Shown here: piece by piece, positions 36,443-64,000 of the stretch
Layout: each line of letters starts with the position of its first letter
How positions within the stretch are numbered: position 1 is the stretch's first letter
Source of the DNA: an uncultured Lachnospiraceae bacterium
Lineage (GTDB): Bacteria; Bacillota; Clostridia; Lachnospirales; Lachnospiraceae
NCBI GenBank assembly: GCA_934339135.1
Contig: CAKRHP010000003.1
Span: forward strand, 124,001-188,000
Length of the DNA: 64,000 nucleotides
Reading direction: 5' to 3'
Notes under the pieces: generated by a model
The model's database searches: none
The model's input: only the letters and a program-made list of their open reading frames with translations
Told to the model about the DNA's origin: nothing
Made by a program: the position numbers and the translations under genes

Positions 36443-36650
36443 TATAAACACATCCTTTCTACTTCTTCATTATACTTTATAATCGATTTTTTGACAATTT
36501 TATTTCATATTCTCTTTCAAGCTAAATTTTCGTGTGTATCAAAATTGCAGACACTTCAAAATCTGCTTATTTATTCCTTGTATGTTTGTACATTCCTTCC
36601 TAATTGTTTACTTCTCTTATCCGTATAAAAAACGTAGTCCAGCTCCTATC

Positions 36651-43022: not shown

Positions 43023-46000
43023 TCAGCTTTCAAAGGAAGCATTCTTGCTGATTCCCCGTTTTTTGAGGAGCTTTTTGTATGCCTCCAGTTTTTTCTTTGA
43101 AGTCTTTACAATAACTTCATCAGAACCATTTGCAAATGCGTTTTTGCCGACATTGCCTGCTTTCAGTTTTTCAGATTTAATGATTATCTTTTTCAGATTT
43201 TTACATCCGTCAAAAGCATTTTTTCCAATGGATTTAATTTGCTTTCCAATCGTTATCTCGTTAATAGTAGTATTATTCTTAAAAGCGTTATCATCAATGG
43301 AAGTTACCTGATATTTTACTCCCGCAACCGTAACACTCTTCGGAATAATAATTTTACTCTTTTTTGATTTCTTGGAAATCTTATACGCCACCGTCGGCTT
43401 ATCCTTTTTGCTACTGGTGATTATATACTGTACTCCATTTTTTCCTTTCAGCTTGCTTCCTACCTTCTGCGGTTTTGCCGCAACCTTTGCAGAAGTTTTC
43501 GGCGATGTCTGCGGTGTCTCACTTGGCTTTGCTGTTGGCTCCGCCGTTGGTTTCACAGATGCTCCCGGGGTCGGCTGGGCTGTCTCTACAGGTTTTGTTG
43601 TCTCTCCCGGCTTTTCGGTCGGCTCTGTCGTTGGCACCTCAGATGTTCCCGGTGCCGGCTGAGTTGGCTGGGCTGTCTCTCCCGGCTTTCCGGTCGGCTC
43701 TGTCGTTGGCACCTCAGATGTTCCCGGTTCCGGCTGGGTTATCTCTCCCGGCTTTGTTGTCTCTCCCGGTTTTGTTGTCTCTCCCGGCTTTGTCGTCTCT
43801 GCAGGCTGGGCTGTCTCTCCCGGTTTTGTCGTCTCTCCCGGCTTTGTTGTCTCCCCCGGCTTTCCGGTCGGCTCTGTCGTTGGTACTACAGTCGGCTCAG
43901 GAGATTTGGTCGGTGTGATCACACTCGTCTTGTCTGAGATTTCTTTTTCCCCTGCTTCATCGTAAAAGTAACCATCACACTCCTGACATTTATAATATGC
44001 GATATTTCCTGTTTCCTGCAGTGTTGCATTCTTCGCCGGAACCAACTCCAGTGTATGAGGTTTTTTTCCCACAGAAACATCTGTCTTCATTATATCTCCA
44101 CACAATTTACATTCCGTATGACCGGTTCCCGCTGCAGTACAGGTCGGTGCATATTCCCCATCTCCGGTATATAAAACCTCCGGATCTTCTTCACATGCTT
44201 TTCGGGTTATTGTTATTTGTTTCCCGATCGTCTTATAACAATCCTTATCATCCCCTGTATAAACCGCTGTAAGGGTCACACTGCCACCGGCAGGAATTGT
44301 CTTTGCTTTGACCGCGTCCAATGATCCACCGGAAGTCTCCGGTGTCCATCCACTGTTTGTCACATCATCTGTAAAAATAAGTTTTCCGGCTTCTTCCACT
44401 GTTTTGACCGTATTCTCTACCATAAGATCTGTCGGTGCATTGTCAGGAATCTCTGCCTTGTTAATCGTCCACTGCCTCGTGATCACGACCGAATTATCCG
44501 AAGTATTTTCAAGATGATATCGATCCGTGTATTCACTCTTCACGGAGATGATCGCCGTCGCTGTGCAAATCCCCGCCCGGGTTGCCACGTTTCCGGAGAG
44601 TGCTACCGTAAGCTGTTCCGGCAACTTATCTGTATCTGCAAGTGAAATGCTCTTCTGAGTGCCATCATAAACGAACGGTTCCTCCGGCGTATTCCATTTC
44701 AGATCCGGAACGCTGATATCCTTTATCCTGTATTTCTCTTGAGGTGTATTCTTATTACTATACACGTCAACTATTTTTCCCTTCGATTGGCAATGACAAT
44801 CCTGATCCTGCTCCCAGCTATATACCCTTTCTCCATTCACCACCGGATATGACTGTTTGTACTTACCTTCCAATGTCTGTCCCCAGACCTCTGCGCTGAC
44901 CTGTTCACCATAAACCGTTCCGCTCCAGCCGCATGACAGCTTATATGCAAGCTCTCCGGAGCTGATCTGTGCTGCAGTAACTCCAACGGGCTCCTTCAGA
45001 TCCTCTGTAGTCATCCAAGTACACTCGCCAATGGCTTGTATTGTCTGGCCGTTACTATCAGCGGACACATCTGTCTGATAATAACAATCAGACATCTCTG
45101 CACCATTTTGTTTTCCAAGCACAGTGCCTTTCTTACTCGTATCTGAACCCATCACCTTGCATTGTGTATAACAATTATGTATGTAGGCATTCGCGGTTGG
45201 ATACCCTGCCCAGCCGGCAATTCCACCTACATGCGCATTACCATTAACGATTCCCTGAAAGGAACAATTTGCCACGAAAGCATCTGAGCAACTACGAATA
45301 ATCCCCCCTACGTCCCCTCCTTTACTGTAAAAATAGGAATCGGCAATCCTTAGATTTTTCACGGTTCCATTTGAGTCTATTTTCCAAAAAAAACCAACAC
45401 CATGGTCTTCCTGAGAACAACAATATAATCCGCTGATCGTATGACCGTCGCCATCAAAAAATATCGTTGATGTGCAATAAGTACCAATTGTCGTCCAGGA
45501 GAAAAATTTATTGTTATCGTTCTCGTAATCCTCTTCCGTTAAGCGGTCTATCAAATTATAATTAACCGTAATGTCCTTCGTAAGCTTTGCGCAAATAACA
45601 TCCGGTTCTTCTTGACACTTATCTGCATACCAATAAAGATTTCCTACGCTTTCTATTTCATAAGGACTCTCTTTTGTACCTGCTCCTTCTGGTTTGATTC
45701 GTTTTAAATAATCACTTTTCGCTGCATCACACTGCGTACATTTTCCATCTGTTCCAAAGTCATGTCCCGTTGCCGGATCATCCGGATCATCCTTCTCGTC
45801 GACAGCCTGACACCTGGTACATGTGCTTATAATTTTTCCATTTTCGGTACAGGTATGTGCTTCTGTGCCTGTCTCCTCCCAAACATGCCCCAGAGCCGGT
45901 GCCCCACCGGACTTAGACACCCATCGTGTTTCCTCACAAGCAAGACACTTCTCTTCCTGAAGCTCCCCTTCCGTACATGTTGCCTCTTTCGTCTGTCCGA

Positions 46001-46724
46001 TCGCTCCCCACCGATGAGCAGCCGGTATGATTGTGGTAATTTCTCGCTTACAATTTTTGCAGGATTTCTTCTGAAAGCCATCCTTTGTGCAGGTAGCTGC
46101 CTGCGTTTCACCATTCACCCATTCATGGTCACATACGTTATAATCAAACAGGATCTCACTCAGCTGCATAACATCTGCACCCTGGTTTGCAGTAAATTCA
46201 AACTTATAATATTGATATTTCGTTTCATTACCATCTACTGAAAACGGATACGAAGTATAGTTTTTATTCTCCATCGTAGTATCCCCGGTCACAGAAGCAA
46301 TCTCTGTCCATGAATTATCCTCATCTTCGGATCTATATGCCTCACATCCATACAGCTTCCAGGTCTTTGGATTTCTTCCACTTTCGCGTGCGTTATCATT
46401 TCCTGTGACAAAGGTATAACCGCCGATCCACACCGGTTCAGATGCTTCAATGATCACATACGCAGAATCAGAAAAGTCACAGCACCATTTTGTGCCATCT
46501 GATTCTGTATATTTTCCATCGAAAAGACTTTCATATCCTTCCCCGTAACTACATCCACTTGTTCCATCAATTCCTTCAAATGTTACCGTTTGCGTCGACT
46601 CTGCCGTGTTTTCCTCTGCCGCAGCTTTAACCGCTGTCAATGTCAGATCCGTCATCATTCCTAACAACATCGCCATGCTGACCAACAGAGCCAGCGTTTT
46701 CTTCCATTTTCCTCTCACTTTCAT
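43023..46724 (-). CDS. Large secreted surface protein (discoidin-like, GLUG, BspA LRR)
   Basis: 1233 aa. Signal peptide about 1-31; an F5/8-type discoidin-like domain about 45-190; Cys/His-rich 'zinc-ribbon-like' repeats with HEWVNGETQAATCTKDGF patterns about 195-330; GLUG-type repeats about 430-520 (GGIIRSCSDAFVANCSFQGI); Ig-like/cadherin-like domains about 670-850; a long PGETTKPGETT linker about 925-1050; and a C-terminal BspA-type leucine-rich domain (INEITIGKQIKSIGKNAF). No LPXTG or SLH motif is visible, so the attachment mode is unknown. Probably an adhesin. The ATG at 46724 follows GGAGG; its promoter and upstream repeats suggest LytTR control. Confidence 0.85.
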   Translation of the reverse strand: MKVRGKWKKTLALLVSMAMLLGMMTDLTLTAVKAAAEENTAESTQTVTFEGIDGTSGCSYGEGYESLFDGKYTESDGTKWCCDFSDSAYVIIEASEPVWIGGYTFVTGNDNARESGRNPKTWKLYGCEAYRSEDEDNSWTEIASVTGDTTMENKNYTSYPFSVDGNETKYQYYKFEFTANQGADVMQLSEILFDYNVCDHEWVNGETQAATCTKDGFQKKSCKNCKREITTIIPAAHRWGAIGQTKEATCTEGELQEEKCLACEETRWVSKSGGAPALGHVWEETGTEAHTCTENGKIISTCTRCQAVDEKDDPDDPATGHDFGTDGKCTQCDAAKSDYLKRIKPEGAGTKESPYEIESVGNLYWYADKCQEEPDVICAKLTKDITVNYNLIDRLTEEDYENDNNKFFSWTTIGTYCTSTIFFDGDGHTISGLYCCSQEDHGVGFFWKIDSNGTVKNLRIADSYFYSKGGDVGGIIRSCSDAFVANCSFQGIVNGNAHVGGIAGWAGYPTANAYIHNCYTQCKVMGSDTSKKGTVLGKQNGAEMSDCYYQTDVSADSNGQTIQAIGECTWMTTEDLKEPVGVTAAQISSGELAYKLSCGWSGTVYGEQVSAEVWGQTLEGKYKQSYPVVNGERVYSWEQDQDCHCQSKGKIVDVYSNKNTPQEKYRIKDISVPDLKWNTPEEPFVYDGTQKSISLADTDKLPEQLTVALSGNVATRAGICTATAIISVKSEYTDRYHLENTSDNSVVITRQWTINKAEIPDNAPTDLMVENTVKTVEEAGKLIFTDDVTNSGWTPETSGGSLDAVKAKTIPAGGSVTLTAVYTGDDKDCYKTIGKQITITRKACEEDPEVLYTGDGEYAPTCTAAGTGHTECKLCGDIMKTDVSVGKKPHTLELVPAKNATLQETGNIAYYKCQECDGYFYDEAGEKEISDKTSVITPTKSPEPTVVPTTEPTGKPGETTKPGETTKPGETAQPAETTKPGETTKPGETTKPGEITQPEPGTSEVPTTEPTGKPGETAQPTQPAPGTSEVPTTEPTEKPGETTKPVETAQPTPGASVKPTAEPTAKPSETPQTSPKTSAKVAAKPQKVGSKLKGKNGVQYIITSSKKDKPTVAYKISKKSKKSKIIIPKSVTVAGVKYQVTSIDDNAFKNNTTINEITIGKQIKSIGKNAFDGCKNLKKIIIKSEKLKAGNVGKNAFANGSDEVIVKTSKKKLEAYKKLLKKRGISKNASFES
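43540..43905 (-). repeat. Coding repeats for the PGETTKPGETT linker
   Basis: Dozens of near-identical codon blocks (Pro-Gly-Glu-Thr-Thr-Lys and TTEPTGKPGET). Such DNA is prone to length change by slippage. Confidence 0.7.
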
Positions 46725-46766
46725 ACAATACCTCCATTTGTGCATTCATCAATCAGGCCTGCTTTG

Positions 46767-52988: not shown

Positions 52989-55900
52989 TTAATTATTACC
53001 ATCGTTTTTGTAGGATTCATATACTTGTGCACAGCTGCCATATGCATAAAGTGCCTTGACAACTTCTCTGAGTGATTCAATATTATTGATATTATCACAC
53101 GCACTGCTCATGACCGTGTATGCATAACTGGTTGCGCCATATTCAAGTACTGCCTGTTCCGTATCAGACAACTCCACATAAAAAACATACTTCTCATTCA
53201 ACTGACTTGCTTTCACTCCGTGTAATGTTATCTTATAACAGTTCTCTTCATTGACTTTTGTTACCTCATACTGATCCTTTGATATTTGATCTGTATTACA
53301 CCAAATTGCAAACATATCTTCCTTCACTGTCACATCATCCGCAAACTGCACAGAAACACATAGATCTGTCGTAGAATTCAATGATAAATACGCGGATTTA
53401 AATGTAACTTTAGCGTTAGCACACTTAACAAAAGCTTTATTTGCATCATTCGTTATATTATTTATAATGCTTGTATCATTAAACACTGTTCCTGTCAGAG
53501 TCAAGCCATCTGACGCAAGCTTATCTGTCTTATATCCAAAATATTTCTGCGCTGCACCACCATAGTTTAACATACCCTTTACCAACTGTATCGTTGCTTT
53601 ACTGATGTCACTTTCCTCTGCAGACATATGTGACAGTATATAATCTGCATACTCTTTTACCGTGTATGTATACACTTTTCCTGTCTTTTCACCATTGTTA
53701 CCAATCATCTGCGCCTGAATATCTGAAGTCATTTCTTTGGCGGCAACTTCACAGGTAAAGACATAATACGTCACACCATTCTTTACTGTTGTATCATCGG
53801 TTGTGGCGGTCGAACCGTCTTCATGCGTTCCACTTACATATACCTTTGATGTCGTACCATTTGGCAAGGTAAAATTCATATATGCGGATTCATCATTTAC
53901 AATGTCATCCGACAACTCCATGTAGAAGTTGACGCCGATATTACCGGTAAGACTTAAGGAATAACCGGCGAGTTTTGCGCCGATGCCGTCTATGATTGCA
54001 GAACAATTATCACATCTTCCATCACTGTCCGCATCCGGATGGTCACCATAGGTATTCTTCTCTGTATTGGAATATTTATAGGACACTGGCTCTCCCGGTT
54101 TGCCCTCGCATCCTTTATAGGTAGCATTCTTGTAAACTTTAGATCCACCTAAAGTCGGATAAGTGTCTTTTCCGATGGTCTGTCCCCAGATTGTGCCATC
54201 ATAAGTCACTTCATCGATTGTGCAGCCCTGTGACAGGAGATAAGCAATTTCACCGGTCTTAAACTCATCTATCGTTTTGCCTTCGACTTTTGTAACTGTT
54301 CCGCTGCCATTCTTGCCTATCGCATTTCCTGTATAAATGGTACTGTCATAATAACAGTTTGTGATGGTTCCTCCATAATTTTCTCCACTCACACCCCCTA
54401 CATAGCCTGTACCACTGACACTACCGGCATTATAACAGTTTGTGGTGGTTCCTTTATTACATCCGTTCACTCCTCCTACATAACGTTCTGTACCACTGAC
54501 ACTACCGGCATTATAACTATTTGTGATAGTTCCTCCGTCATTATATCCGTTCACTCCTCCCACATTATCGTCGCTACCACTGACGCTACCGATATTATAA
54601 CAGTCTGTGATGCTTCCGGTATAATTAATTCCGTTCACTCCTCCTACATAGCCATTACCACTGACGCTACCGGCATTATAACAGTTTGTGATGGTTCCTT
54701 TATTACGTCCGTTCACTCCTCCTACAAAATCTTGACTACCACTGACGTTTCCGGTATTATAGCAATCTGTGATGCTTCCGGTATAATTATATCCGCTCAC
54801 TCCTCCTACACTTCCTATACCACTGACGCTGCCGGTATTATAACAGTTTGTGATAGTTCCTCCGTCATTATATCCGTTCACTCCTCCTACATTGCTGGCA
54901 CCATAGAAATAAGAGTCCAGAATACCTGCATTGGCAATCTTACCACTGTTACAACCGAACAATCCTATATCATAACTATTCTCTTGATTGAAATACAATC
55001 CACTGATTGTGTAGTTTCGTCCGTCAAATGTACCAGTGTATACGTTAGGGCTTGTTTCACCCGTCCCAATCGGTGTCCATTCCTTAAATGTTCCATCATT
55101 CAAGGTTCCATCTGACTTCAGAACATTTTTATTCACAACAATATCTTTTGTCAGAACTGCATTGGCTGATGTATTCTGCGCTACGCCTGAAAGTGTTCCA
55201 TTTACAAGTCCTGCAAACCAGTAAAGCTGACCAGCATTGCTGATCTCGTAAACCGCATCCTTGCTATCGTCCCCATTAATATCATACTTGTCTGTGGTGA
55301 GCTTTGCCGGCTGGTATGCATCACACAACGTACAGAAACCGTTCTCGCCGATGCTGTGAGTTTCCGTTTCTTTCGTCATATATCCGATCGGACAGTCCTT
55401 GCATGCCACATTTTTTATATGTTCATTGTCATCTTTCCAAGTGTATGTAACTGAGCCGCCGGTATTATGCATGTGCTTTTCACCAGTTGTTTCTACATCC
55501 TCGATCATATGGCCATTTACTAATATGTTTGCCCCATCTTCAACTGCAAGCAGTTCCTGATTCGTAATGCTTGCCCCTTGCATAAACACGATAGTTCCAT
55601 TATTTGGTATCGTTAATTTTTCTATCAACGATGCAGTACCATATACAACTGACTTCGTGACATTATTTCCATATTGTTTTGTAACGACTGCATTACTAAA
55701 ACTACCACCATATATTACCTGATTTTCATATCCTCTACTATTACATGCCATGATCTGACTATTTGACACAACGAGTTCTTTTTTTGATAAAATTGCAAAA
55801 TCACTATCTTGTTCTATCTTTGCTTCAACATAACTGTTTGCAATAGATATATCACAGCCAGCATTAATTGCATAACTGGCACTGTCTCCACTAGAAACAA

Positions 55901-56477
55901 TTACATGACTATTCTCAATCTTCAAGCTGCCTATACATGAAATTTCCGGTGCATGTACCGTAGCATCTGTAATTTTCAGATTCATTTGCTTACCAGATCC
56001 GTCTGGTATAGTTCCATCACCGATTCGTGTTCCAACCGTCAAACTTCCACTATTATCACTCTTTAATTCCAGCGTATGTTCCCCATTGCTTGACTTTGAT
56101 GTAATATTACCACTTACTGTATTTTCCCCGGATAACAAAACAGTAAGATCACCACCTTCAACAGTAATATGTTGAACAGACGCATTTTGGAGTACAAGCT
56201 GATTCTTCGTGCTGTCATAATACCAATTCGTTCCCTGATATATCGCAGTATCATTACTAGAAACTTTATCATCTTGAAGTTTCCCGTTACTAATAATACT
56301 ACCTATTGACGCATCTTTTCCCATTATGGACAAGGATTGTGGAATGGTTCCCACCGCAGTATCCTCCGCCTTTGCATTCATCACGCCCCAGCCGCTCACA
56401 TCCACCGCCGACAGCACCATAAGAGCCGCCATGGCTCCTGCAAATATCCGTCTTGCTCCTCGTTTTCTTCGTTTCAT
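52989..56477 (-). CDS. Large secreted GLUG-repeat surface protein
   Basis: 1162 aa. Signal peptide about 1-32 (AGAMAALMVLSAVDVSG, cleavage after NAKA). Residues about 60-330 form repetitive beta strands (possible right-handed beta helix: NSYVEAKIEQD, NSQIMACNS). A Cys-containing spacer about 340-390 is followed by at least eight GLUG repeats about 480-690 (VGGVNGYNDGGTITNCYNTG). The C-terminal ~330 residues have no named domain. Similar N-terminal and GLUG regions occur in the 43-46.7 kb protein, so the two are related. No sortase motif. ATG at 56477 with GGAGG five bases upstream. Probably an adhesin or glycan-binding protein. Confidence 0.85.
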   Translation of the reverse strand: MKRRKRGARRIFAGAMAALMVLSAVDVSGWGVMNAKAEDTAVGTIPQSLSIMGKDASIGSIISNGKLQDDKVSSNDTAIYQGTNWYYDSTKNQLVLQNASVQHITVEGGDLTVLLSGENTVSGNITSKSSNGEHTLELKSDNSGSLTVGTRIGDGTIPDGSGKQMNLKITDATVHAPEISCIGSLKIENSHVIVSSGDSASYAINAGCDISIANSYVEAKIEQDSDFAILSKKELVVSNSQIMACNSRGYENQVIYGGSFSNAVVTKQYGNNVTKSVVYGTASLIEKLTIPNNGTIVFMQGASITNQELLAVEDGANILVNGHMIEDVETTGEKHMHNTGGSVTYTWKDDNEHIKNVACKDCPIGYMTKETETHSIGENGFCTLCDAYQPAKLTTDKYDINGDDSKDAVYEISNAGQLYWFAGLVNGTLSGVAQNTSANAVLTKDIVVNKNVLKSDGTLNDGTFKEWTPIGTGETSPNVYTGTFDGRNYTISGLYFNQENSYDIGLFGCNSGKIANAGILDSYFYGASNVGGVNGYNDGGTITNCYNTGSVSGIGSVGGVSGYNYTGSITDCYNTGNVSGSQDFVGGVNGRNKGTITNCYNAGSVSGNGYVGGVNGINYTGSITDCYNIGSVSGSDDNVGGVNGYNDGGTITNSYNAGSVSGTERYVGGVNGCNKGTTTNCYNAGSVSGTGYVGGVSGENYGGTITNCYYDSTIYTGNAIGKNGSGTVTKVEGKTIDEFKTGEIAYLLSQGCTIDEVTYDGTIWGQTIGKDTYPTLGGSKVYKNATYKGCEGKPGEPVSYKYSNTEKNTYGDHPDADSDGRCDNCSAIIDGIGAKLAGYSLSLTGNIGVNFYMELSDDIVNDESAYMNFTLPNGTTSKVYVSGTHEDGSTATTDDTTVKNGVTYYVFTCEVAAKEMTSDIQAQMIGNNGEKTGKVYTYTVKEYADYILSHMSAEESDISKATIQLVKGMLNYGGAAQKYFGYKTDKLASDGLTLTGTVFNDTSIINNITNDANKAFVKCANAKVTFKSAYLSLNSTTDLCVSVQFADDVTVKEDMFAIWCNTDQISKDQYEVTKVNEENCYKITLHGVKASQLNEKYVFYVELSDTEQAVLEYGATSYAYTVMSSACDNINNIESLREVVKALYAYGSCAQVYESYKNDGNN
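54340..54900 (-). repeat. Tandem coding repeats for GLUG units
   Basis: Blocks of about 60-70 bp alternate between two types (GGTITNCYN and TGSITDCYN). The near-identity of the copies at DNA level points to recent duplication. Confidence 0.7.
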
Positions 56478-56558
56478 ATCTTCCTCCTTTTCTTTCATTG
56501 TCTATGCAACACTTATTTCCTTCGTCGGCACACACAACAAACATTGACTCCCTCTCTG

Positions 56559-57209
56559 TCACTCAGAGGTTTTTGCATAATTTAAGATCATTTCCTTGAT
56601 CCTGAGTAACTCCGGAGTATAATCCTTGTTGTCCTCTGATCCCCAGATAAATCCGCTGGCACAGTACGTACAAGCCGTCATCATTGTATGCACTGTCACA
56701 CGAAAAAATTCCTCCTTCGGAATATCCGTACGAAATGTGTGATCCTCCTTTGCTTTCTCATACATCCATTCCAGTCTCGTATCGACCGAATAAAGGGATG
56801 CATGAAACTCCTCAAGCTGCTCCTCCTTCACTCCCTCATGGGTGACATAATGGTTGAAGTTGTCATTATACTGCAATAAATCCTTGTGATGCCGGTACAT
56901 GTCGATATAACTGTCCAGCGTGAAGGTAAACCGGTCGATCGCCGGAATATCTCCAATGGATTCCAGCGGACGCTTCGCATCCAGTGCATCCAGATACTCT
57001 TTCCATTTGGCAGCACACACCGCGATCACTAACTCCAGCTTATTCGGATAATAGCGGAATAATGTCGCGCGTCCTACTCCCGCTGCCTCTGCAATCTCTC
57101 CCATACTGACCGGCTCAATTTTCTTCTCAACAAAGGTTTGGAATGCCGCATTGATAATTGCTTTTCTTCTGTGATCTTTTATACTGCTTTTTTTCTGTGT
57201 CATATTCAT
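56559..57209 (-). CDS. TetR-family transcriptional regulator
   Basis: 216 aa. The N-terminal helix-turn-helix is clear (AIINAAFQTFVEKKIEPVS, IAEAAGVGRATLFRYYPNKLEL). The C-terminal ligand domain has no recognised subfamily. AAAGGA lies eight bases before the ATG. It is divergent to the second TetR gene across a 160-bp regulatory gap, and it may control itself, the other regulator or the acyl-ligase operon. Confidence 0.9.
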   Translation of the reverse strand: MNMTQKKSSIKDHRRKAIINAAFQTFVEKKIEPVSMGEIAEAAGVGRATLFRYYPNKLELVIAVCAAKWKEYLDALDAKRPLESIGDIPAIDRFTFTLDSYIDMYRHHKDLLQYNDNFNHYVTHEGVKEEQLEEFHASLYSVDTRLEWMYEKAKEDHTFRTDIPKEEFFRVTVHTMMTACTYCASGFIWGSEDNKDYTPELLRIKEMILNYAKTSE

Positions 57210-57242
57210 AAAATAATCCTTTCCTTGATACTTCCTGTCTCA

Positions 57243-57271
57243 AGCATACAGAAAGATCCGTGTATTGTCAA
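57243..57271 (-). promoter_or_regulatory. Promoter of the first TetR gene
   Basis: On the minus strand TTGACA (57266-57271), 17-bp spacer, TATGCT (57243-57248). Confidence 0.7.
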
Positions 57272-57301
57272 CAACAATGATACGAGGTTTGAGAAAATGA
57301 T

Positions 57302-57330
57302 TTGACCAATCCGTCAACTCATGCTATGGT
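57302..57330 (+). promoter_or_regulatory. Promoter of the second TetR gene with overlapping inverted repeat
   Basis: TTGACC (57302-57307), 17-bp spacer, TATGGT (57325-57330). TTGAC and GTCAA (57302-57306, 57312-57316) form an inverted repeat across the -35 box, a plausible auto-operator. Confidence 0.6.
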
Positions 57331-57371
57331 TTCATTGTAAACTTTATGTAAAATCAAAAACGGGGGCTCTT

Positions 57372-57965
57372 ATGAATAAAAATATACAGGATGAGCGGTT
57401 TCTCGTGGCAGAGGAGGCGATCTGCCAGGCATTCTATGAAATTGCCCAAAAAAAGACACTGGAGCGGATCACAGTGTCTGATGTTATTAAAAAAGCCGGG
57501 ATCGTCCGGAGTACCTTTTATAATCATTACGAAGGAATTCCCGATCTGTTGGACGCAGTGGAGGATCAGACGATCCACCATCTCTTTACGATGATGGATC
57601 AGTTCCATGTCAAAAAACACACCCCGCAGGATAATTCTGTCATTATCCTCCGTTTTTATCAGAATTTATGCAGCTATATCCGGGAAAATCCTTTTCTGGC
57701 ACAGCTGCTTGGCAGTCCCCGCGGTGATGCATTCTTTGAGAAAACTCTGACCATGTTTCACCGGTATGTCAGAGACGCAGCCGATCTCACCGGCTCCACC
57801 GTACATTCCAGACAGGAGGTGTCTTTCGCGATCGCTTATTCCATTGGCGGAGCACTTGGCATTCTCCACAAATGGACAAAGGAGGATTTTGCAGCTCCGG
57901 CAGATACCGTTGCAAAGCTGTTGGCAGACTCCTTTTCAAAAGCCACACTCCCCTATCTGGATTGA
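57372..57965 (+). CDS. TetR-family transcriptional regulator
   Basis: 197 aa. Helix-turn-helix RITVSDVIKKAGIVRSTFYNHYEGI; the C-terminal domain resembles the TetR_C subgroup common in Firmicutes (DhaS-like). The ATG at 57372 follows GGGGG; a frame from 57321 would begin upstream of the -10 box. Its 3' end overlaps the end of the acyl-ligase gene by 13 bp, tail to tail, so regulator and operon are physically tied. Confidence 0.9.
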   Translation: MNKNIQDERFLVAEEAICQAFYEIAQKKTLERITVSDVIKKAGIVRSTFYNHYEGIPDLLDAVEDQTIHHLFTMMDQFHVKKHTPQDNSVIILRFYQNLCSYIRENPFLAQLLGSPRGDAFFEKTLTMFHRYVRDAADLTGSTVHSRQEVSFAIAYSIGGALGILHKWTKEDFAAPADTVAKLLADSFSKATLPYLD

Positions 57966-59512
57966 TCATCTGCTTCATCTATATTTACTTTTGCACGGAC
58001 AATCTTGCCCGTTGCATTGCGCACAAATGGATTTTTGCGGACAACCAGCCCCGTGATCTGACGGTAGGTTGGTTGTTTTTTGTTGTATTCATCCAGTACA
58101 TCCTGAAGTTTTTTGTGTATCATCTGTTCATCGGGTGACATCGCTTCCACAACCGCCTGCTCCGGATAAATGTGGGCAGACAGCCCCTGATCTTCCCCGG
58201 TGATGATGACTTCTCCCACCAGAGGATCCAGTCCGATCTTATTTTCTATTTCCTCCGGGGATATATTCTCTCCATTGGAAAGAATGATCAGATTTTTGAC
58301 ACGTCCGTTGATAAACAGGAATCCATCCTCATCCAGATATCCCTTGTCTCCGGTATGCAGCCAGCCTCCCCGGAGTGCCTCTTTTGTTTCCTGCGGCATT
58401 TTGTAATATCCTTTCATCACGCTGCTTCCCCGCACCAGGATCTCACCATTTTCAAAGGAAACCTCTACATTGGACAGTGGCCTTCCGATGGAGCCCGCCT
58501 TGTGGTCTTCCACGGAATTTGTACTGATCACGGGAGAGCATTCCGACATGCCATATCCCTCCAGCACCTGCACACCGTACTCCTCAAACTTTCCGATATA
58601 GAAAGGATCCAGATGTGCCCCGCCGGTAAATATGGTATGGAGAGCCGGTCCAAACACCGCTCCTGCCACAGCCTTTGGGGGAAGGGATGCATCTGCCATG
58701 CTGAGCTTTTTGTACAGTGTCTCTATCATCATCGGCACCATCAGCATCATCTCCGGCTGGAAGATGCCCATATTCCGCACCATATGCATAAAGGAATCAT
58801 TGATACAAAGCGTTGCTCCCAGGGAGAAGCCCTTGAGCCAGTCCATGACAAGACAAAATGCATGATGGATCGGAAGCACGCTCAGCACCTTCGTTCCGGG
58901 TTTGACGGAAATCGTCACGGACAATACGTTCTGTGCCAGATTTGCCTGTGTGAGCATAACGCCCTTGCTTTTGCCTGTGGTTCCGGACGTATAGATGATC
59001 GTTGCAATGTCCTCTGCCCTGACCTGCTTCTCTGGATCCTCTGCCTGTTCTCCTTCTTCCAAAAGTCGTGCTAACGGAAAGACCCTGTCTGCCGGTTCCT
59101 CTCCCTGTCCCTGAAGCATCCAGATCTGTTTCAGCTTCGGACAGGATGATAAGATCCCCGGGATCAGGGAACGATTCTTTTCACTGATAAATAATGCCTC
59201 ACTGTCCGACCTGTTTAACAGTTCTTCCAGATCTTCTGCCGGCAGTCCCGCATCTAATGGCACTGCCACACTGCCGCCGGTAATCACTGCGAGATAGCTT
59301 TCGATCCATTCCGGACTACTGCTTCCGATCAGAGCAATATGCTTTCCTTTCATCTCTTTTCCCTGCAGTCCCCGTCGGATCCTGCCGATCCGCTCCCAGA
59401 GTTCCCCATAGGTCTCTCCGCACACTTCTCGTTTTTTCAGCCACTGGACTGCTGTAACATCCCTATGTTCCCGGACACTGTTGTCCAGTATTTCTCCAAT
59501 CAGCATACTCAT
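57953..59512 (-). CDS. Acyl-AMP / acyl-CoA ligase (AMP-binding family)
   Basis: 519 aa. ANL-superfamily motifs: P loop TIIYTSGTTGKSKGVML, GYGMSECSP, LHTGDKGYLDEDGFLFINGRVKN and the C-terminal catalytic Lys in NATGKIVRAKV. It activates a carboxylic acid with ATP and passes it to CoA or to a carrier. The gene starts inside the stop of the ACP gene (ATGA overlap), so translation is coupled and the neighbouring ACP is the likely acceptor. The substrate is not readable; no signal peptide. Third gene of the condensation-domain operon. Confidence 0.93.
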   Translation of the reverse strand: MSMLIGEILDNSVREHRDVTAVQWLKKREVCGETYGELWERIGRIRRGLQGKEMKGKHIALIGSSSPEWIESYLAVITGGSVAVPLDAGLPAEDLEELLNRSDSEALFISEKNRSLIPGILSSCPKLKQIWMLQGQGEEPADRVFPLARLLEEGEQAEDPEKQVRAEDIATIIYTSGTTGKSKGVMLTQANLAQNVLSVTISVKPGTKVLSVLPIHHAFCLVMDWLKGFSLGATLCINDSFMHMVRNMGIFQPEMMLMVPMMIETLYKKLSMADASLPPKAVAGAVFGPALHTIFTGGAHLDPFYIGKFEEYGVQVLEGYGMSECSPVISTNSVEDHKAGSIGRPLSNVEVSFENGEILVRGSSVMKGYYKMPQETKEALRGGWLHTGDKGYLDEDGFLFINGRVKNLIILSNGENISPEEIENKIGLDPLVGEVIITGEDQGLSAHIYPEQAVVEAMSPDEQMIHKKLQDVLDEYNKKQPTYRQITGLVVRKNPFVRNATGKIVRAKVNIDEADDQSR

Positions 59513-59739
59513 TCCATACACTCCTTTTCCAGTAATTCCAATGCCTCGCCGATCGTCCGGACCTGCAGGGCATCTTCTTCCTCCAGCTCTATATCAAAGG
59601 TATCCTCCAGTTCTCCCAACAGAGACATAAAGTCCAGCGAGCTGAATCCCAGATCCTCCCGGAATCTTTTTTCCGGATCCATATCCTCCGGCTTTGTTTC
59701 GCAGTATCTTGCCACAATTTCTTTAAATGTCTGTTCCAT
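59509..59739 (-). CDS. Acyl carrier protein
   Basis: 76 aa from the ATG at 59739 (GGAGG eight bases upstream; a longer in-frame start at 59757 is possible). A four-helix acidic carrier with phosphopantetheine Ser S34 in DLGFSSLDFM. Asp before this Ser is replaced by Ser, a mild variation of the DSL motif. Dedicated ACP of this cluster, not the fatty-acid ACP, as no fab genes are near. Confidence 0.92.
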   Translation of the reverse strand: MEQTFKEIVARYCETKPEDMDPEKRFREDLGFSSLDFMSLLGELEDTFDIELEEEDALQVRTIGEALELLEKECME

Positions 59740-59769
59740 CGTCTCATCCTCCATCACTATGTTATTTCC

Positions 59770-61158
59770 TCAAACTTTTTCCATGATCTCTCCCAGTGTT
59801 ATTTCCGGATCTTCCATGCCGGCAAATAAAACACGCATGAGATAATAGTACATGATCTCCATATCCTTTTCGCAAAGATGTGCCGTCTGATAATGGAAGG
59901 AAAAGCATGTTCCGCCATCCGGCGTATGGGATACCGTAAGATACATCTTTTTGGTTGCCGCTCCATTGGCAAACCACCGTGCATGGGTCCTGATCCCCTC
60001 CAGATAAGGATTATCCACAGATACCGGCATCGGCTGATAGGTCAGATAACAACTCTCATACGCCGTGTGCTCCGGTGTATGATACCTGCGCTTCATTTCC
60101 TGTACGATCAGCTCCGGATCATAATTGCTGTGAAGGTATATCCGGTTCTGTACATTCTGGATCTCGTATGCCGCATCGAGAAACTCCGTATCCGGTGTCA
60201 TCACTGTACGGCACGGAAACATAATGGTCCTGCTGCCTCCCGAGGTCCATTCTGCCTTGGTGGAACGCCTGGAAATGAAATTCTGTATGGTAATGTCTTC
60301 CTGACCGTGATTAACCTTTGACAGATATGTCCTGATCCCCAAAAGCAAAAGATTGGTCACGGAAATCTGGTGTGTCTGGCAAAAATCCATCATCCTCCCG
60401 GTCGGCTCCGGCTCGAGGATATAGTCTTTGACCTGCACAAACAGGTTCTCCATCTCTATATCCGCTGCACGCAGCGTGGGATCGTTATGCTTTTTTCTCG
60501 CCCGGGCAAGCACCTCCGGACCCTGAATATCCGAATAAAGCGGTTCGCCCCATGTATCCAGCTGATCCTCCCAGAATTTTTTATCCTTTAAAAATCTCTT
60601 CTGACGTGATGCTTTTGCAAGATCCGTCCGGAGTACTTCCTCGTAGTCCGCCAGCGGTTCCGGCTTTGGTGCCTGAAAACGGTAATGCGTATACAGCTTC
60701 ATCACATCATTGATCATGACCACCAGACCACAGGAGTCGATCAGGCGGTGATCCATATGAATAAAGAAGCCTTCGTAACCTTCCGGCAGCTTCATCAGCC
60801 GGATCTCACACATAGGCACATCGTCCCCCTCAAAGGTTTCATATGCCCATCCCTGCATGATTTCATCTGCTTTTTCCATCGTCATATCAGACAGATCAAA
60901 CGTCTTCAGCTTCCGGTTGTCTCTTTTCATGATATACTGTTGTACTTCGCCGTGTTTATCCGGTCCGGTAAAACGTACTCTCATACACCCATATCTGCAG
61001 ATCTCTTCCCGAAGGCATTTTTCCAGCAATGCCATGTCCAGTTCTGCCTGTAACGATGCCACAACACTGACACCGGAAACCTGCTGGGTATGATACCGGT
61101 TGATCCAGTGATGATGCATCTTTTGAGCCGCTGTCAGCGGATAATATGTTCTCTCCAT
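59770..61158 (-). CDS. Standalone condensation-domain protein
   Basis: 462 aa, the length of one NRPS condensation (C) domain, with nothing fused. The active-site motif HHxxxDG is present as DHRLIDS (residues 136-142): the catalytic second His (H137) and the Asp (D141) are kept, while the first His is Asp and the Gly is Ser. The latch motif region SRRSTKAEW is visible. C domains and related acyltransferases join an acyl-carrier thioester to an amine or alcohol. With the ACP and ligase it should transfer an acyl group to an unknown acceptor. The ATG at 61158 follows AAGGGG. First gene of the operon. Confidence 0.85.
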   Translation of the reverse strand: MERTYYPLTAAQKMHHHWINRYHTQQVSGVSVVASLQAELDMALLEKCLREEICRYGCMRVRFTGPDKHGEVQQYIMKRDNRKLKTFDLSDMTMEKADEIMQGWAYETFEGDDVPMCEIRLMKLPEGYEGFFIHMDHRLIDSCGLVVMINDVMKLYTHYRFQAPKPEPLADYEEVLRTDLAKASRQKRFLKDKKFWEDQLDTWGEPLYSDIQGPEVLARARKKHNDPTLRAADIEMENLFVQVKDYILEPEPTGRMMDFCQTHQISVTNLLLLGIRTYLSKVNHGQEDITIQNFISRRSTKAEWTSGGSRTIMFPCRTVMTPDTEFLDAAYEIQNVQNRIYLHSNYDPELIVQEMKRRYHTPEHTAYESCYLTYQPMPVSVDNPYLEGIRTHARWFANGAATKKMYLTVSHTPDGGTCFSFHYQTAHLCEKDMEIMYYYLMRVLFAGMEDPEITLGEIMEKV

Positions 61159-61211
61159 ACAATTCCCCTTTTCCTGCCAGATCATTTATTGTTTCTGCAA
61201 GTCAGAGTAAC

Positions 61212-61240
61212 ACAATAGAAATTACATTTCTACCCTGCAA
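61212..61240 (-). promoter_or_regulatory. Promoter of the condensation/ACP/ligase operon
   Basis: On the minus strand TTGCAG (61235-61240), 17-bp spacer, TATTGT (61212-61217). Confidence 0.65.
61216..61232. promoter_or_regulatory. 17-bp palindrome between -35 and -10
   Basis: TAGAAAT-TAC-ATTTCTA, two perfect 7-bp arms, nearly filling the promoter spacer. This is a usual place for a TetR-type repressor operator; two TetR genes lie at the other end of the operon. Confidence 0.7.
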
Positions 61241-61259
61241 GACGCTTAACGGACACCAT

Positions 61260-61292
61260 AAAAAAAAGTGTCCGGAACTTACCGTACACTTT
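61260..61292 (-). terminator. Terminator of the hydrolase gene
   Basis: On the minus strand AAAGTGT-A-CGG pairs with CCG-G-ACACTTT, followed by a run of T. It separates the hydrolase/nucleotidyltransferase unit from the condensation operon. Confidence 0.8.
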
Positions 61293-61323
61293 CTCGTTTT
61301 ATGTTTGATATTTCCGGACATAT

Positions 61324-62223
61324 CTATCTTATTCCGGCTCCTGCATCATACTTTTCAAAGAATTGGAGCAGCGACTGATGATATTTTTCCCATTGCTGAA
61401 AAGCACAGCACAGATGTCTCGCCCCGCCGATGATCACAAGTCTTTTGGGAGCACGGCACATCTGATAATTTTTTACCGACTGATCCGGATGGACAAAGCC
61501 GTCCCTGGAACCATGAAAAAACAAAACCGGTCTGTGGTTGACTGCCATGGCATGTGTGGTATCTGCATCCTTCATGGAAAAATGAGCCTGAAGACGGCAC
61601 CTGACCGATAACCGCCATAACAGCACCGGAATATGAGGAAGATGAAACCAGCTTGCAGCCATGTGCTGAAACTGTGATTTCATGGATACAAATCCGCAGT
61701 CTGCAATGATCCCCTTTACATAATGAGGTAATTCCTTTCCGGATGCCATAAGCACTGCGGAGGCTCCCATGGATTTGCCAAACAGATAGATTGGAAGCCG
61801 CTTTTTGTTTCGTTTTGCCAGATACCAGCACCACCGTTTCACATCCTCCTGCTCCAAAGCTCCAAATGTGATATATCCTCCCTCACTGGCTCCACAGCTT
61901 CTCTGATCGATAAACAGCAGATTGCACCCGTGTTCATGTAAAAAACGGGCATCCGGTGCAAAGTCCCCAAATCCGCTTCCGCGGTACCCATGGGACAGAA
62001 GTATCGTGCGTACGGCATTTTCTGCCGGCAGATAGAAGGCATGCAGCTGCAGTCCGTCATGGCTTCTTACAAAACAATGCTGCATATGCTGCTCCATGCA
62101 CCACTGTTTCCCCTGCTCATACTCCTCCGGAAACCAGACACGCGGATGATTGATCTTCATTTTACGGGGTTTGAATCCTTCCCCGTTTCCTGCTTTCGTC
62201 CTTTTTTTATTTTTAACGACCAT
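61324..62223 (-). CDS. Alpha/beta hydrolase
   Basis: 299 aa from the ATG at 62223. Catalytic triad visible: Ser in GKSMGAS, Asp in HGSRDGFV, His in GGARHLCC; oxyanion region HGYRGSG. Such hydrolases cleave esters or thioesters. A GTG at 62247 would be an alternative start. It overlaps the end of the nucleotidyltransferase gene by 11 bp, so the two are co-transcribed. In the context it might release or edit the acyl product, which is inference. No clear signal peptide, though the N-terminus is basic. Confidence 0.85.
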   Translation of the reverse strand: MVVKNKKRTKAGNGEGFKPRKMKINHPRVWFPEEYEQGKQWCMEQHMQHCFVRSHDGLQLHAFYLPAENAVRTILLSHGYRGSGFGDFAPDARFLHEHGCNLLFIDQRSCGASEGGYITFGALEQEDVKRWCWYLAKRNKKRLPIYLFGKSMGASAVLMASGKELPHYVKGIIADCGFVSMKSQFQHMAASWFHLPHIPVLLWRLSVRCRLQAHFSMKDADTTHAMAVNHRPVLFFHGSRDGFVHPDQSVKNYQMCRAPKRLVIIGGARHLCCAFQQWEKYHQSLLQFFEKYDAGAGIR

Positions 62224-63454
62224 TCGAAATAAAATCACATCCGCCACCTCTCTTTCCGGATTTTTTCACAATTTTTACTTCATGCAATATCCTGCTTCTG
62301 CGCTCTTTGCAAAGGATCATCCGGAAAGCCCGGTACACCCAGTAAAACGGCAGCAGCCAGTGATGTCTTTCCAAAGCCGGACAATAATCGTAATGCTCTT
62401 TTCCCGGAAACAGCCTCTTTAATACATAAGAAGCTTTTGAAATCCTTCCGTCCTGTTTCCGGTACCGGCTCATATTGTTTAGGACTCTGCGCTCTGTCGT
62501 GCCATATGCACCGGAAGTCATATAGTAACAGAGCAGCTTTTTCTCTTCCGTTGAAAGGGCGTAGCGAAATCTCCCCGTTCCTTCCTCTGCGAGAGTATCG
62601 TTCATCCGGAACACTTTCTTGCAAAGAATCCTGTTTGCTTGTTCAAAATCAGCAATCCCCAGGATCCCGCACTGCTTGTCAATATAATGAAAATCAAGGG
62701 TATCTTCCAGCCGGTTCAGATACACATACTGATCCAGCAGAGAACGGATCCCCGTCCCGCTTCCGTCAAAGTGCTTGAAGGTATGTGTCATGATATATAC
62801 ATAGAAATCCTCATCTGTAAACCGGTATTCGAAACGATTCCCTATGGGGTGCAGACGATCTTTGATCCTATCATAATAGGTTATCCACTCATTATGATGA
62901 CCGGCTCCGTAAAGGGAAGTATGCATTTCAAAATTATAGACCGGTTCCTTTTCATAGACATCATGATTGCCCTGATCAAAGGCTTCCACCTCATAACCGC
63001 GGCTTACCATGTAATCCCGAATCTGACCGGCATATGCCTGATCAAACAAAATGTCATTGTCCGACATCTGCCGCATGCCGATGGATGGATAGAAGTCCTT
63101 TAATATCATGCCTTTTAATGGCATATGCCAGATCTCCTGCTCATCCATATAAGAAAAGATCTCCGCCCGCTCCTGATCGAACAGGATGACCTTGCGGATG
63201 GCTTTGGCAATGCTCTGTTCCCACTCTGCCGGAAGCTTCACTCCGGCCTTTTTCAGTACGGTTCCGGTCAGTGCATCCACAAAATGAGCCTTGCTGAATT
63301 GATACAGCGTCTGCAGCCTGTCTGCGTCGTATGCTTTCTGAAATGCTGCGATATAAGCCTTTGCGGGCATTTTGTCATTTACGCCACACCCCAGCAGATA
63401 AAGCAGATCACACATGATATCGGAAAGGTCAGCGTTTTTCATTTCATTTTCCAT
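62213..63454 (-). CDS. Nucleotidyltransferase-family protein (NTP_transf_5-like)
   Basis: 413 aa. The family pattern PLKGMILKDFYPSIGMRQMSDNDILF is clear, with the Asp pair of the metal site in SDNDI, followed by the long helical part. Members are found in biosynthetic clusters, among them lasso-peptide clusters, and are thought to nucleotidylate small molecules or peptides. AAAGGAG lies before the ATG. Here next to an ACP-dependent acyl pathway it may tailor the same product. Basic C-terminus. Confidence 0.8.
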   Translation of the reverse strand: MENEMKNADLSDIMCDLLYLLGCGVNDKMPAKAYIAAFQKAYDADRLQTLYQFSKAHFVDALTGTVLKKAGVKLPAEWEQSIAKAIRKVILFDQERAEIFSYMDEQEIWHMPLKGMILKDFYPSIGMRQMSDNDILFDQAYAGQIRDYMVSRGYEVEAFDQGNHDVYEKEPVYNFEMHTSLYGAGHHNEWITYYDRIKDRLHPIGNRFEYRFTDEDFYVYIMTHTFKHFDGSGTGIRSLLDQYVYLNRLEDTLDFHYIDKQCGILGIADFEQANRILCKKVFRMNDTLAEEGTGRFRYALSTEEKKLLCYYMTSGAYGTTERRVLNNMSRYRKQDGRISKASYVLKRLFPGKEHYDYCPALERHHWLLPFYWVYRAFRMILCKERRSRILHEVKIVKKSGKRGGGCDFISNGR

Positions 63455-63532
63455 GCTTTTCTCCTTTCACAGCAGTAATTCTTAACAGACCTTTTATAAT
63501 CTATTACTGTTCTTATATTTTGTAGAGTTACA

Positions 63533-63990
63533 TTACAATAATCCATCTGGATTAGGATGTGTTTTAAAGTAGATATGTAAATTAGTATGTCTCTCCAAAG
63601 AATGTAAACCTTCTTTGATATACCTCCATGATGCACCTATATTATTAGGTGCTCCATTTACAACATCTGACTCCAGAAATGCAGGAAATAAATATTCTTT
63701 TCCTATAAATTTCTCATAAAATTCATCCGCATATTCTTGCTTTAATTTTTTGTCTAAATTAATCTCATTGTACAAGGCATGATCCAGATTGCAAGACATA
63801 AAATACATTTCATATGGAAATGATTTTATCATCGTCTGATTCAATAAATATTCCAATATATCTCTCTTATGGTAAATCCAAAATCAATTTCCTTATTCCT
63901 TCTGTATATTTTTTTAAAAATATTTTCTAAAGCTGCCTTATCTGACGAACCTTCAACAATAAAAATAATCTCTTTTTTCTCTTTTGCCAT
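63533..63990 (-). pseudogene. TOPRIM-like protein with internal deletion and frameshift
   Basis: From an ATG at 63990 the frame reads KEIIFIVEGSSDKAALEN, a TOPRIM-type start (E in VEG, then SDK), and runs 45 codons to a stop. A second frame, shifted and starting near 63856, continues with MSCNLDHALYNEINLDKK, SWRYIKEGLHSLERHTNLH, as expected for the C-terminal half of the same family. The middle, including the metal-binding DxD region, is missing. Function before decay: probably an OLD/RloB-like defence-type nuclease, inferred. Confidence 0.65.
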
Positions 63991-64000
63991 AGTTACCCCC

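What the first reader, a model, noticed from the sequence alone, without database searches (positions are those of the whole stretch)
57953..63454. Minimal acyl-ACP / standalone condensation-domain pathway with nucleotidyltransferase
Three tightly linked genes give an acid-activating ligase (ATGA-coupled to) a dedicated ACP and a single, unfused C-domain protein with a DHxxxD active site. No adenylation domain for amino acids and no PKS/NRPS chain is present, so the pathway would move one acyl group from ACP onto a free acceptor. A co-oriented hydrolase and an NTP_transf_5-like enzyme adjoin, and two TetR genes flank it. I know of no characterised product with this gene set.
Basis: partly seen in the sequence, partly recalled or inferred. 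Interest (0 to 1): 0.72.

Follow-up and report, generated by a model that had tools for sequence, protein, structure and literature searches.

The report
Gut-bacterial fatty acid amide gene cluster
This is a gene cluster of a kind already known from gut Clostridia, whose enzymes join a fatty acid to a small amine to make lipid signal molecules; comparing its relatives suggests two further partners, a hydrolase gene and a dedicated switch in front of the synthesis genes.

Summary
The genes are real and placed as described: ligase, ATGA-coupled ACP and a stand-alone condensation (C) protein with DHRLIDS. The pathway is not uncharacterised. The C protein matches OaaC of Coprococcus eutactus over its full length (PDB 12kh; 563 bits, 51% identity), which with its ACP and ligase makes fatty acid amides in vitro. 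The triplet is intact in 68 of 68 related loci with enough sequence. The nucleotidyltransferase is a chance neighbour (0 of 80 loci; no co-occurrence in 348 genomes), and so is the second TetR gene (0 of 80). The alpha/beta hydrolase (57 of 71 testable loci) and the first TetR (66 of 80) do belong. Found here: a ~90-bp element directly upstream of the C gene (77 of 80 loci; window 61310-61202) with two tandem palindromes, usually 33 bp apart where both are seen; the exact form of the first is found in 7 of 18 genomes searched, only at this promoter. A distant sister group of C proteins has its own hydrolase, TetR, operator pair and an SCP2 lipid carrier, apparently recruited independently. The product's amine and acyl chain are unknown. 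Verdict: new member of a known kind, with a better-defined accessory module.

The parts
59770..61158 (-). stand-alone condensation protein (462 aa, motif DHRLIDS), homologue of OaaC
   Evidence: Pfam Condensation 119.7 bits; phmmer to PDB 12kh (OaaC) 562.7 bits, E 5.9e-168; 51.3% identity over 460 columns; in one clade with OaaC on the tree
59509..59757 (-). acyl carrier protein (82 aa from GTG, 76 aa from ATG 59739), attachment Ser in GFSSLDF
   Evidence: Pfam PP-binding 52.6 bits; ACP seen in 77 of 80 relatives' loci, after C
57953..59512 (-). AMP-forming fatty-acid ligase that would load the ACP; ATGA overlap with the ACP gene
   Evidence: Pfam AMP-binding 223 bits; amino-acid adenylation model TIGR01733 far below its cut-off, 143 against 317 bits; ATGA read; motifs TSGTTGKSKG, GYGMSE, TGD
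61202..61310 (-). conserved promoter element with two tandem palindromes: site 1 TATCAAACA-N13-TGTACGGTA 61310-61280 (right half degenerate here), site 2 CCGGACA-N13-TGTCCGTTA 61275-61247, then GGGTAGAAAT 61235-61226 and TGTGTTACT 61214-61206
   Evidence: profile built without the window: 42.1 bits, E 3.4e-12 at 61292-61202; 77 of 80 relatives; sites
61324..62238 (-). alpha/beta hydrolase (304 aa, GTG start, triad S156-D246-H275); lacks the N-terminal hydrophobic helix seen in most relatives
   Evidence: Pfam Hydrolase_4; present near C in 57 of 71 testable loci, 48 directly upstream; alignment A2; model pLDDT 88.7, folds as esterase / monoglyceride lipase / thioesterase
57372..57965 (+). TetR-A, locus-linked TetR-family regulator, convergent with the ligase gene
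   Evidence: Pfam TetR_C_8 26.8 bits, cut-off 26.1; 66 of 80 loci; 11 of 12 clade-1 C genomes against 4 of 336 others

Best explanation
A fatty acid amide (N-acyl amide) biosynthesis cluster of the OaaC type in an unnamed bacterium, by its relatives probably a gut Lachnospiraceae. The ligase activates a free fatty acid with ATP and loads it onto the phosphopantetheine arm of the ACP. The unfused C protein then transfers the acyl group to a freely diffusing small amine and releases the amide. TetR-A probably controls the C-ACP-ligase operon through two palindromes upstream of a weak -35 box, which is the geometry of an activator. The hydrolase probably works in the same pathway; I favour release of the fatty acid from an ester or thioester, or editing of mis-loaded ACP. 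Shown here: genes, motifs, homology, conserved linkage, conserved element. Shown by others on the homologue: the chemistry. Inferred: that this copy is active, the identity of amine and acyl chain, that TetR-A binds the element, and what the hydrolase does.
For: C protein full-length homologue of OaaC, whose reconstitution with OaaA and OaaACP makes oleoyl-, palmitoleoyl- and lauroyl-amides of aminovaleric acid or GABA (PMC13142362, section read). DHxxxDS is the motif given there for OaaC-like FAA C domains. C-ACP-ligase order kept in 68 of 68 loci with at least 2.2 kb after C. No amino-acid adenylation domain or acceptor carrier protein among the genes of the cluster. Element in 77 of 80 loci (49 of 52 held out of the profile). 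The zero-mismatch form of its first palindrome is in 7 of 18 genomes and only at this promoter. TetR-A and the element go together: of 59 loci with enough sequence after C, 55 have both, 2 neither, 1 the element alone and 1 TetR alone; that last one is L051, whose contig starts at the C gene.
Against: No product was made. The C protein shares only 51% identity with OaaC, so amine and chain may differ. 14 of 71 testable loci have no hydrolase nearby, so it is not essential everywhere. In the window a hairpin with a T-run lies between hydrolase and C, so the two may not be co-transcribed. The consensus scan reports no sigma-70-type promoter at the element. No phosphopantetheinyl transferase gene was sought in the window's genome, which is not held. 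The TetR-A/element link is correlational.
Confidence: 0.88

Rival explanations
1. The C protein acylates a different kind of free acceptor, for example an amino acid, a polyamine, an alcohol or a sugar-nucleotide, so the product is not a classical fatty acid amide.
For: The window belongs to a tight core group separate from OaaC on the tree, and amine specificity cannot be read from sequence. The 80 loci include many from rumen and wild-animal samples by their titles, not only human gut.
Against: Same motif (DHxxxDS) and same gene trio as OaaC; PMC13142362 states that these C domains are selective for certain amines while excluding amino acids (introduction).
Confidence: 0.12
2. One reading: the nucleotidyltransferase supplies or modifies the acceptor, so this is a new acyl-transfer pathway.
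For: NTP_transf_5 overlaps the hydrolase frame by 26 bp and is co-oriented, so the two may be co-transcribed here.
Against: 0 of 80 related loci have it. In 348 genomes it occurs in 3 of 47 C-bearing and 31 of 301 other genomes (p 0.60), in the 3 not on the same contig as C.
Confidence: 0.03
3. The hydrolase and the TetR gene are only conserved neighbours, with no role in amide synthesis.
For: In clade 1 the hydrolase lies upstream of the operon promoter and is missing in 14 of 71 testable loci.
Against: A second, distant C clade has a hydrolase from another branch of the family (AU p 0.011 against one clade), in 16 of 16 loci read and ending 23-63 nt before the C match in 15 of them. Close hydrolase relatives (47% identity or more, a limit set after seeing the list) occur in 6 of 12 clade-1 genomes and 0 of 336 others (p 4e-10). 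The second clade also has a linked TetR gene, one that does not cluster with TetR-A.
Confidence: 0.2

Closest known systems
Oaa cluster of Coprococcus eutactus (OaaA, OaaACP, OaaC; oleoyl aminovaleric acid), PMC13142362 (preprint; read: abstract, introduction, the first 2 of 8 text parts, sections 7, 8, 9, 10, 19, 24, the figure legends, and passages found by term) and PDB 12kh, which that paper names as OaaC
   Same: Stand-alone C protein with DHxxxDS, separate ACP and separate ligase; alignment over residues 10-469 with one gap, including the stretch that holds the described insertion helix.
   Different: 51% identity in C; OaaC branches at the base of the clade. 'hydrolase' and 'TetR' have 0 occurrences in that paper's main text, and the promoter element is not in the parts I read. 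I did not see the Oaa locus itself.
FAA clusters of gut Clostridia, Chang et al. 2021, Nat Microbiol 6:792 (title and reference seen; paper not held; content recalled and as described in PMC13142362)
   Same: Gene set and proposed chemistry.
   Different: Whether that paper shows the window's own species, the hydrolase or the regulator could not be checked.
DhaS-type TetR regulators (TIGR02366)
   Same: Best NCBIfam hit of TetR-A, 37.8 bits; I recall operators with GGACA...TGTCC-like halves, but one search found no paper to check this.
   Different: Far below the family cut-off of 129 bits, so not filed as DhaS.
Monoglyceride lipases, PF2001 esterase and DcsB thioesterase
   Different: 12-20% sequence identity; a shared fold does not give the substrate.

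Membership tests
FAA (fatty acid amide) NRPS-like cluster | unfused C protein with (D/H)HxxxD and S/A/G after the Asp | tested here: met
   DHRLIDS at residue 136 of the 462-aa protein
FAA (fatty acid amide) NRPS-like cluster | C protein falls in the FAA clade | tested here: inconclusive
   562.7 bits to OaaC against at most 23.8 bits to any other chain in the PDB; groups with OaaC on a tree of stand-alone C proteins, but no starter or LCL domains were included
FAA (fatty acid amide) NRPS-like cluster | separate ACP and fatty-acid ligase beside C | tested here: met
   68 of 68 relatives with enough sequence
FAA (fatty acid amide) NRPS-like cluster | no acceptor carrier protein or amino-acid A domain in the cluster | tested here: met
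   open frames at 53000-64000 and Pfam on eight of them; ligase below the amino-acid adenylation cut-off
FAA (fatty acid amide) NRPS-like cluster | makes an acyl amide from acyl-ACP and free amine | not testable with these tools
   needs LC-MS reconstitution
FAA (fatty acid amide) NRPS-like cluster | homodimer opened by holo- or acyl-ACP (OaaC) | not tested
   no complex prediction was run
DhaS regulator (TIGR02366) | score above the equivalog cut-off | tested here: not met
   37.8 bits against 129
TetR family with TetR_C_8 domain | Pfam PF14278 above cut-off | tested here: met
   26.8 bits against 26.1; the DNA-binding domain model TetR_N scores 20.9, under its cut-off of 24

The most novel reading that the evidence does not exclude
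FAA synthesis in gut Lachnospiraceae is a switched five-part module, not a three-gene one. A dedicated TetR senses a lipid or amine ligand and turns the operon on through a tandem operator used nowhere else in the genome, and a dedicated hydrolase supplies or edits the acyl donor. The same module was assembled twice from unrelated TetR and hydrolase branches, the second time with an SCP2 lipid carrier and a repressor-type operator pair.
Probability: 0.45. Interest if true: 0.6.

Novelty: new member of a known kind. Interest (0 to 1): 0.42.

Why it matters
FAA clusters make lipids that act on human G-protein-coupled receptors (PMC13142362). In the parts I read, that paper discusses control by carrier-protein state but no transcriptional control, and 'TetR' does not occur in it. 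A locus-specific regulator with a conserved operator would make inducers searchable: a reporter behind 61310-61159 could be screened with gut fatty acids and amines. The hydrolase is a candidate enzyme for where the free fatty acid comes from. The window's core group (67-73% identity to the window in 79 of the 80 loci) probably shares one conserved product that can be looked for in culture.

Tried and rejected
Nucleotidyltransferase as part of the pathway: rejected. Second TetR (56559-57209) and the GLUG-repeat protein (52989-56498) as part of it: queried against the 80 loci at E 1e-4 and not found in any. Truncation of the window's hydrolase by a rearrangement: rejected as a fresh event, because near-identical and sister proteins (P0121-P0125) begin in the same way; it looks like an older loss of the N-terminal helix in this lineage. 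Terminator between hydrolase and C: the hairpin is unusual by energy (z -3.3), but most of it lies inside the conserved element, so it may be the operator. The tool's own scan lists no terminator there, and promoter-like (13 found, 13.4 expected) and terminator-like (6 found, 5.8 expected) sites in 56400-64000 are no more than chance. Perfect palindromes of short spacing upstream of C or TetR-A: at most 4 of 80 C regions and 2 of 67 TetR-A regions share one. The first site count for the sister clade used a wrong pattern and found none; corrected. Rfam: 0 matches in the window. A guessed sequence pattern gave 0 matches and is not used. Hydrolase function from fold: esterase, lipase and thioesterase all fit, not resolved. 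FAAL versus acyl-ACP synthetase class of the ligase: not resolved.

Limits: the 80 loci come from exact peptide patterns of the window's own protein, so they are close relatives by design. The half-site rule for the palindromes was set after looking at the sequences, on regions picked by a profile that holds them, and its control is a plain base shuffle. Trees are quick ones without bootstrap, and long branches meet. To the hydrolase tree I gave 25 hydrolases from the 80 loci, the window's, one more clade-1, 13 clade-2 and 18 unlinked ones; to the C tree 72 of 136 C rows. The N-terminal helix was judged by eye. SCP2 was confirmed by Pfam in 2 of the 12 clustered proteins.
Full report
What is there. 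On the minus strand of 57953-63454 lie, in order of transcription, NTP_transf_5 (63454-62213), an alpha/beta hydrolase (62238-61324), a C protein (61158-59770), an ACP (59757-59509) and a ligase (59512-57953). All frames are intact, and Pfam assigns all five above their cut-offs. The ligase start overlaps the ACP stop as ATGA. The C motif is DHRLIDS, the ACP has GFSSLDF, and the hydrolase keeps Ser, Asp and His. TetR-A (57372-57965, plus strand) converges on the ligase and overlaps its end by 13 bp; TetR-B follows further on.

What it is. The C protein matches PDB 12kh over its full length with 562.7 bits; the next chain in the PDB has 23.8 bits. 12kh is OaaC of Coprococcus eutactus (PMC13142362, data availability). 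That preprint (parts read: abstract, introduction, the first two of eight text parts, sections 7, 8, 9, 10, 19, 24 and the figure legends) describes the same three-protein set and its reconstitution: fatty acid + ATP + ligase -> acyl-ACP -> C -> amide with aminovaleric acid or GABA. It credits the discovery of such clusters in gut Clostridia to Chang et al. 2021, which is not held. The window is therefore a further FAA cluster. Identity to OaaC is 51.3% over 460 columns. On the tree OaaC sits at the base of the clade and the window in a tight core group with Blautia, Butyrivibrio and Eubacterium relatives, so the product need not be the OaaC product.

Is the set conserved? C-ACP-ligase is intact in 68 of 68 loci with at least 2.2 kb after C. 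Clustering the frames in the 80 loci leaves ligase, TetR-A, hydrolase and ACP recurring at set places around C, besides two families of antisense frames over the ACP region; the next family, an ABC ATPase by its sequence, is in 15 loci at scattered places. Of 80 loci, 9 have under 1.5 kb before C. Of the other 71, 48 have the hydrolase directly upstream on the same strand, 9 have it elsewhere within 5.2 kb (2 of them on the other strand), and 14 lack it. TetR-A is seen in 66 of 80, NTP_transf_5 in 0 of 80, TetR-B in 0 of 80.

Whole genomes. In 348 genomes of one family, 47 have a C match at E <= 1e-20: 12 at 50% identity or more (clade 1) and 35 weaker, 27-40%. Hydrolases at 47% identity or more occur in 6 of the 12 clade-1 genomes and 0 of 336 others; the limit was set after seeing the list, and 21 more genomes have weaker hydrolase matches. 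TetR-A matches occur in 11 of 12 against 4 of 336, one of the 11 being a short fragment on another contig. NTP_transf_5 occurs in 3 of 47 C-bearing and 31 of 301 other genomes, p 0.60. In 216 genomes of the wider class, 10 have a C match at E <= 1e-30, two of which are also in the family set.

A second group. Among the weaker matches are C proteins with DHxxxDA or close variants; PMC13142362 counts alanine there in 36% of its FAA set and serine in 42%. In the 16 such loci read, hydrolase, ACP and ligase are beside C in 16 of 16. In 13 longer stretches (L111-L122, L150), a small protein family is seen before the hydrolase in 12 and a divergent TetR gene that does not cluster with TetR-A in 11. 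The small protein is SCP2 by Pfam in the two examples tested. Between that TetR gene and the SCP2 gene, 9 of 10 loci hold two GACC-N3-GGTC-like sites, 43-54 bp apart and 44 in seven, the first overlapping a TTGACC -35-like box. The hydrolases of the two groups are each one clade (SH-aLRT 99 and 99), and a tree that joins them is rejected (AU p 0.011). Two separate recruitments of a hydrolase next to C is the best argument I have that it belongs to the pathway.

The promoter element. Upstream of C, 77 of 80 loci share an element of about 90 bp at E <= 1; 49 of the 52 loci not used to build the profile have it, 48 of these at E < 1e-3. The 3 without it are L051 (no upstream sequence), L057 and L077. 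It was not found in the second group or in the outlying lineages L123-L125. A profile built without the window finds it at 61292-61202 with 42.1 bits, E 3.4e-12; the reversed-sequence control reaches at most 8.1 bits. It holds palindromes of the form TATCAAACA-N13-TGTTTGATA and CGGTCA-N13-TGTTTGTTA; in the window the right half of the first is degenerate. At least one is in 75 of 78 regions (shuffles: mean 8.7, highest 18). A tandem pair is in 36 of 78 (shuffles: mean 0.04, highest 1), at 33 bp in 35 and 31 bp in one. In 18 whole genomes the first palindrome, with one mismatch allowed, is found in 11, and in 10 of these at the C promoter. The zero-mismatch form is in 7 genomes and only there; 4 one-mismatch places lie elsewhere, in G004, G011 and G013, and the backward control pattern hits only in G003. 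A sequence model of the element searched in 348 genomes gives 23 with a match at E <= 0.01: 7 at E < 1e-6, all directly upstream of a clade-1 C gene (at least two of them, G208 and G128, appear to be in the training set by contig and coordinates), 3 weak matches at the right place, and 15 weak matches elsewhere. The palindromes lie upstream of the -35-like GGGTAGAAAT, which fits an activator; that TetR-A is the binder is inferred from linkage alone.

Verdict. The claim of no characterised product and the nucleotidyltransferase link are not borne out. What remains of interest is the defined accessory module and its dedicated switch. I found no paper in the held library that describes hydrolase or TetR partners of these clusters, but the key 2021 paper could not be read, so this is no claim that it is unpublished.

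Noticed in passing
   Followed up: partly
L129:8072-9475 and L130:8441-9829: Orphan C proteins (40% identity, DHRIMDS) with no ACP, ligase or hydrolase match near them.
   Followed up: no
L111-L122, about 1.2 kb before C: SCP2-family small protein as first gene of the second group's operon; a possible carrier for fatty acid or product.
   Followed up: partly
L019:8001-10144: TetR-A homologue follows C directly, with no ACP or ligase found; deletion or assembly fault.
   Followed up: no
window 61232-61216: Palindrome TAGAAATGTAATTTCTA overlapping the -35-like region of the C promoter; not among those shared by relatives.
   Followed up: partly
window 52989-56498: 1169-aa protein with GLUG repeats and, by eye, a signal-like start; the region also has a BspA-type leucine-rich-repeat protein (43023-46745).
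   Followed up: no
window 26969-29074: One frame with a PTS EIIC domain and an EAL domain: a sugar-transporter-like membrane part fused to a cyclic-di-GMP phosphodiesterase domain.
   Followed up: no
window 33887-36451: Restriction-modification-like protein joining HSDR_N, N6 methylase and type I specificity domains in one chain.
   Followed up: no
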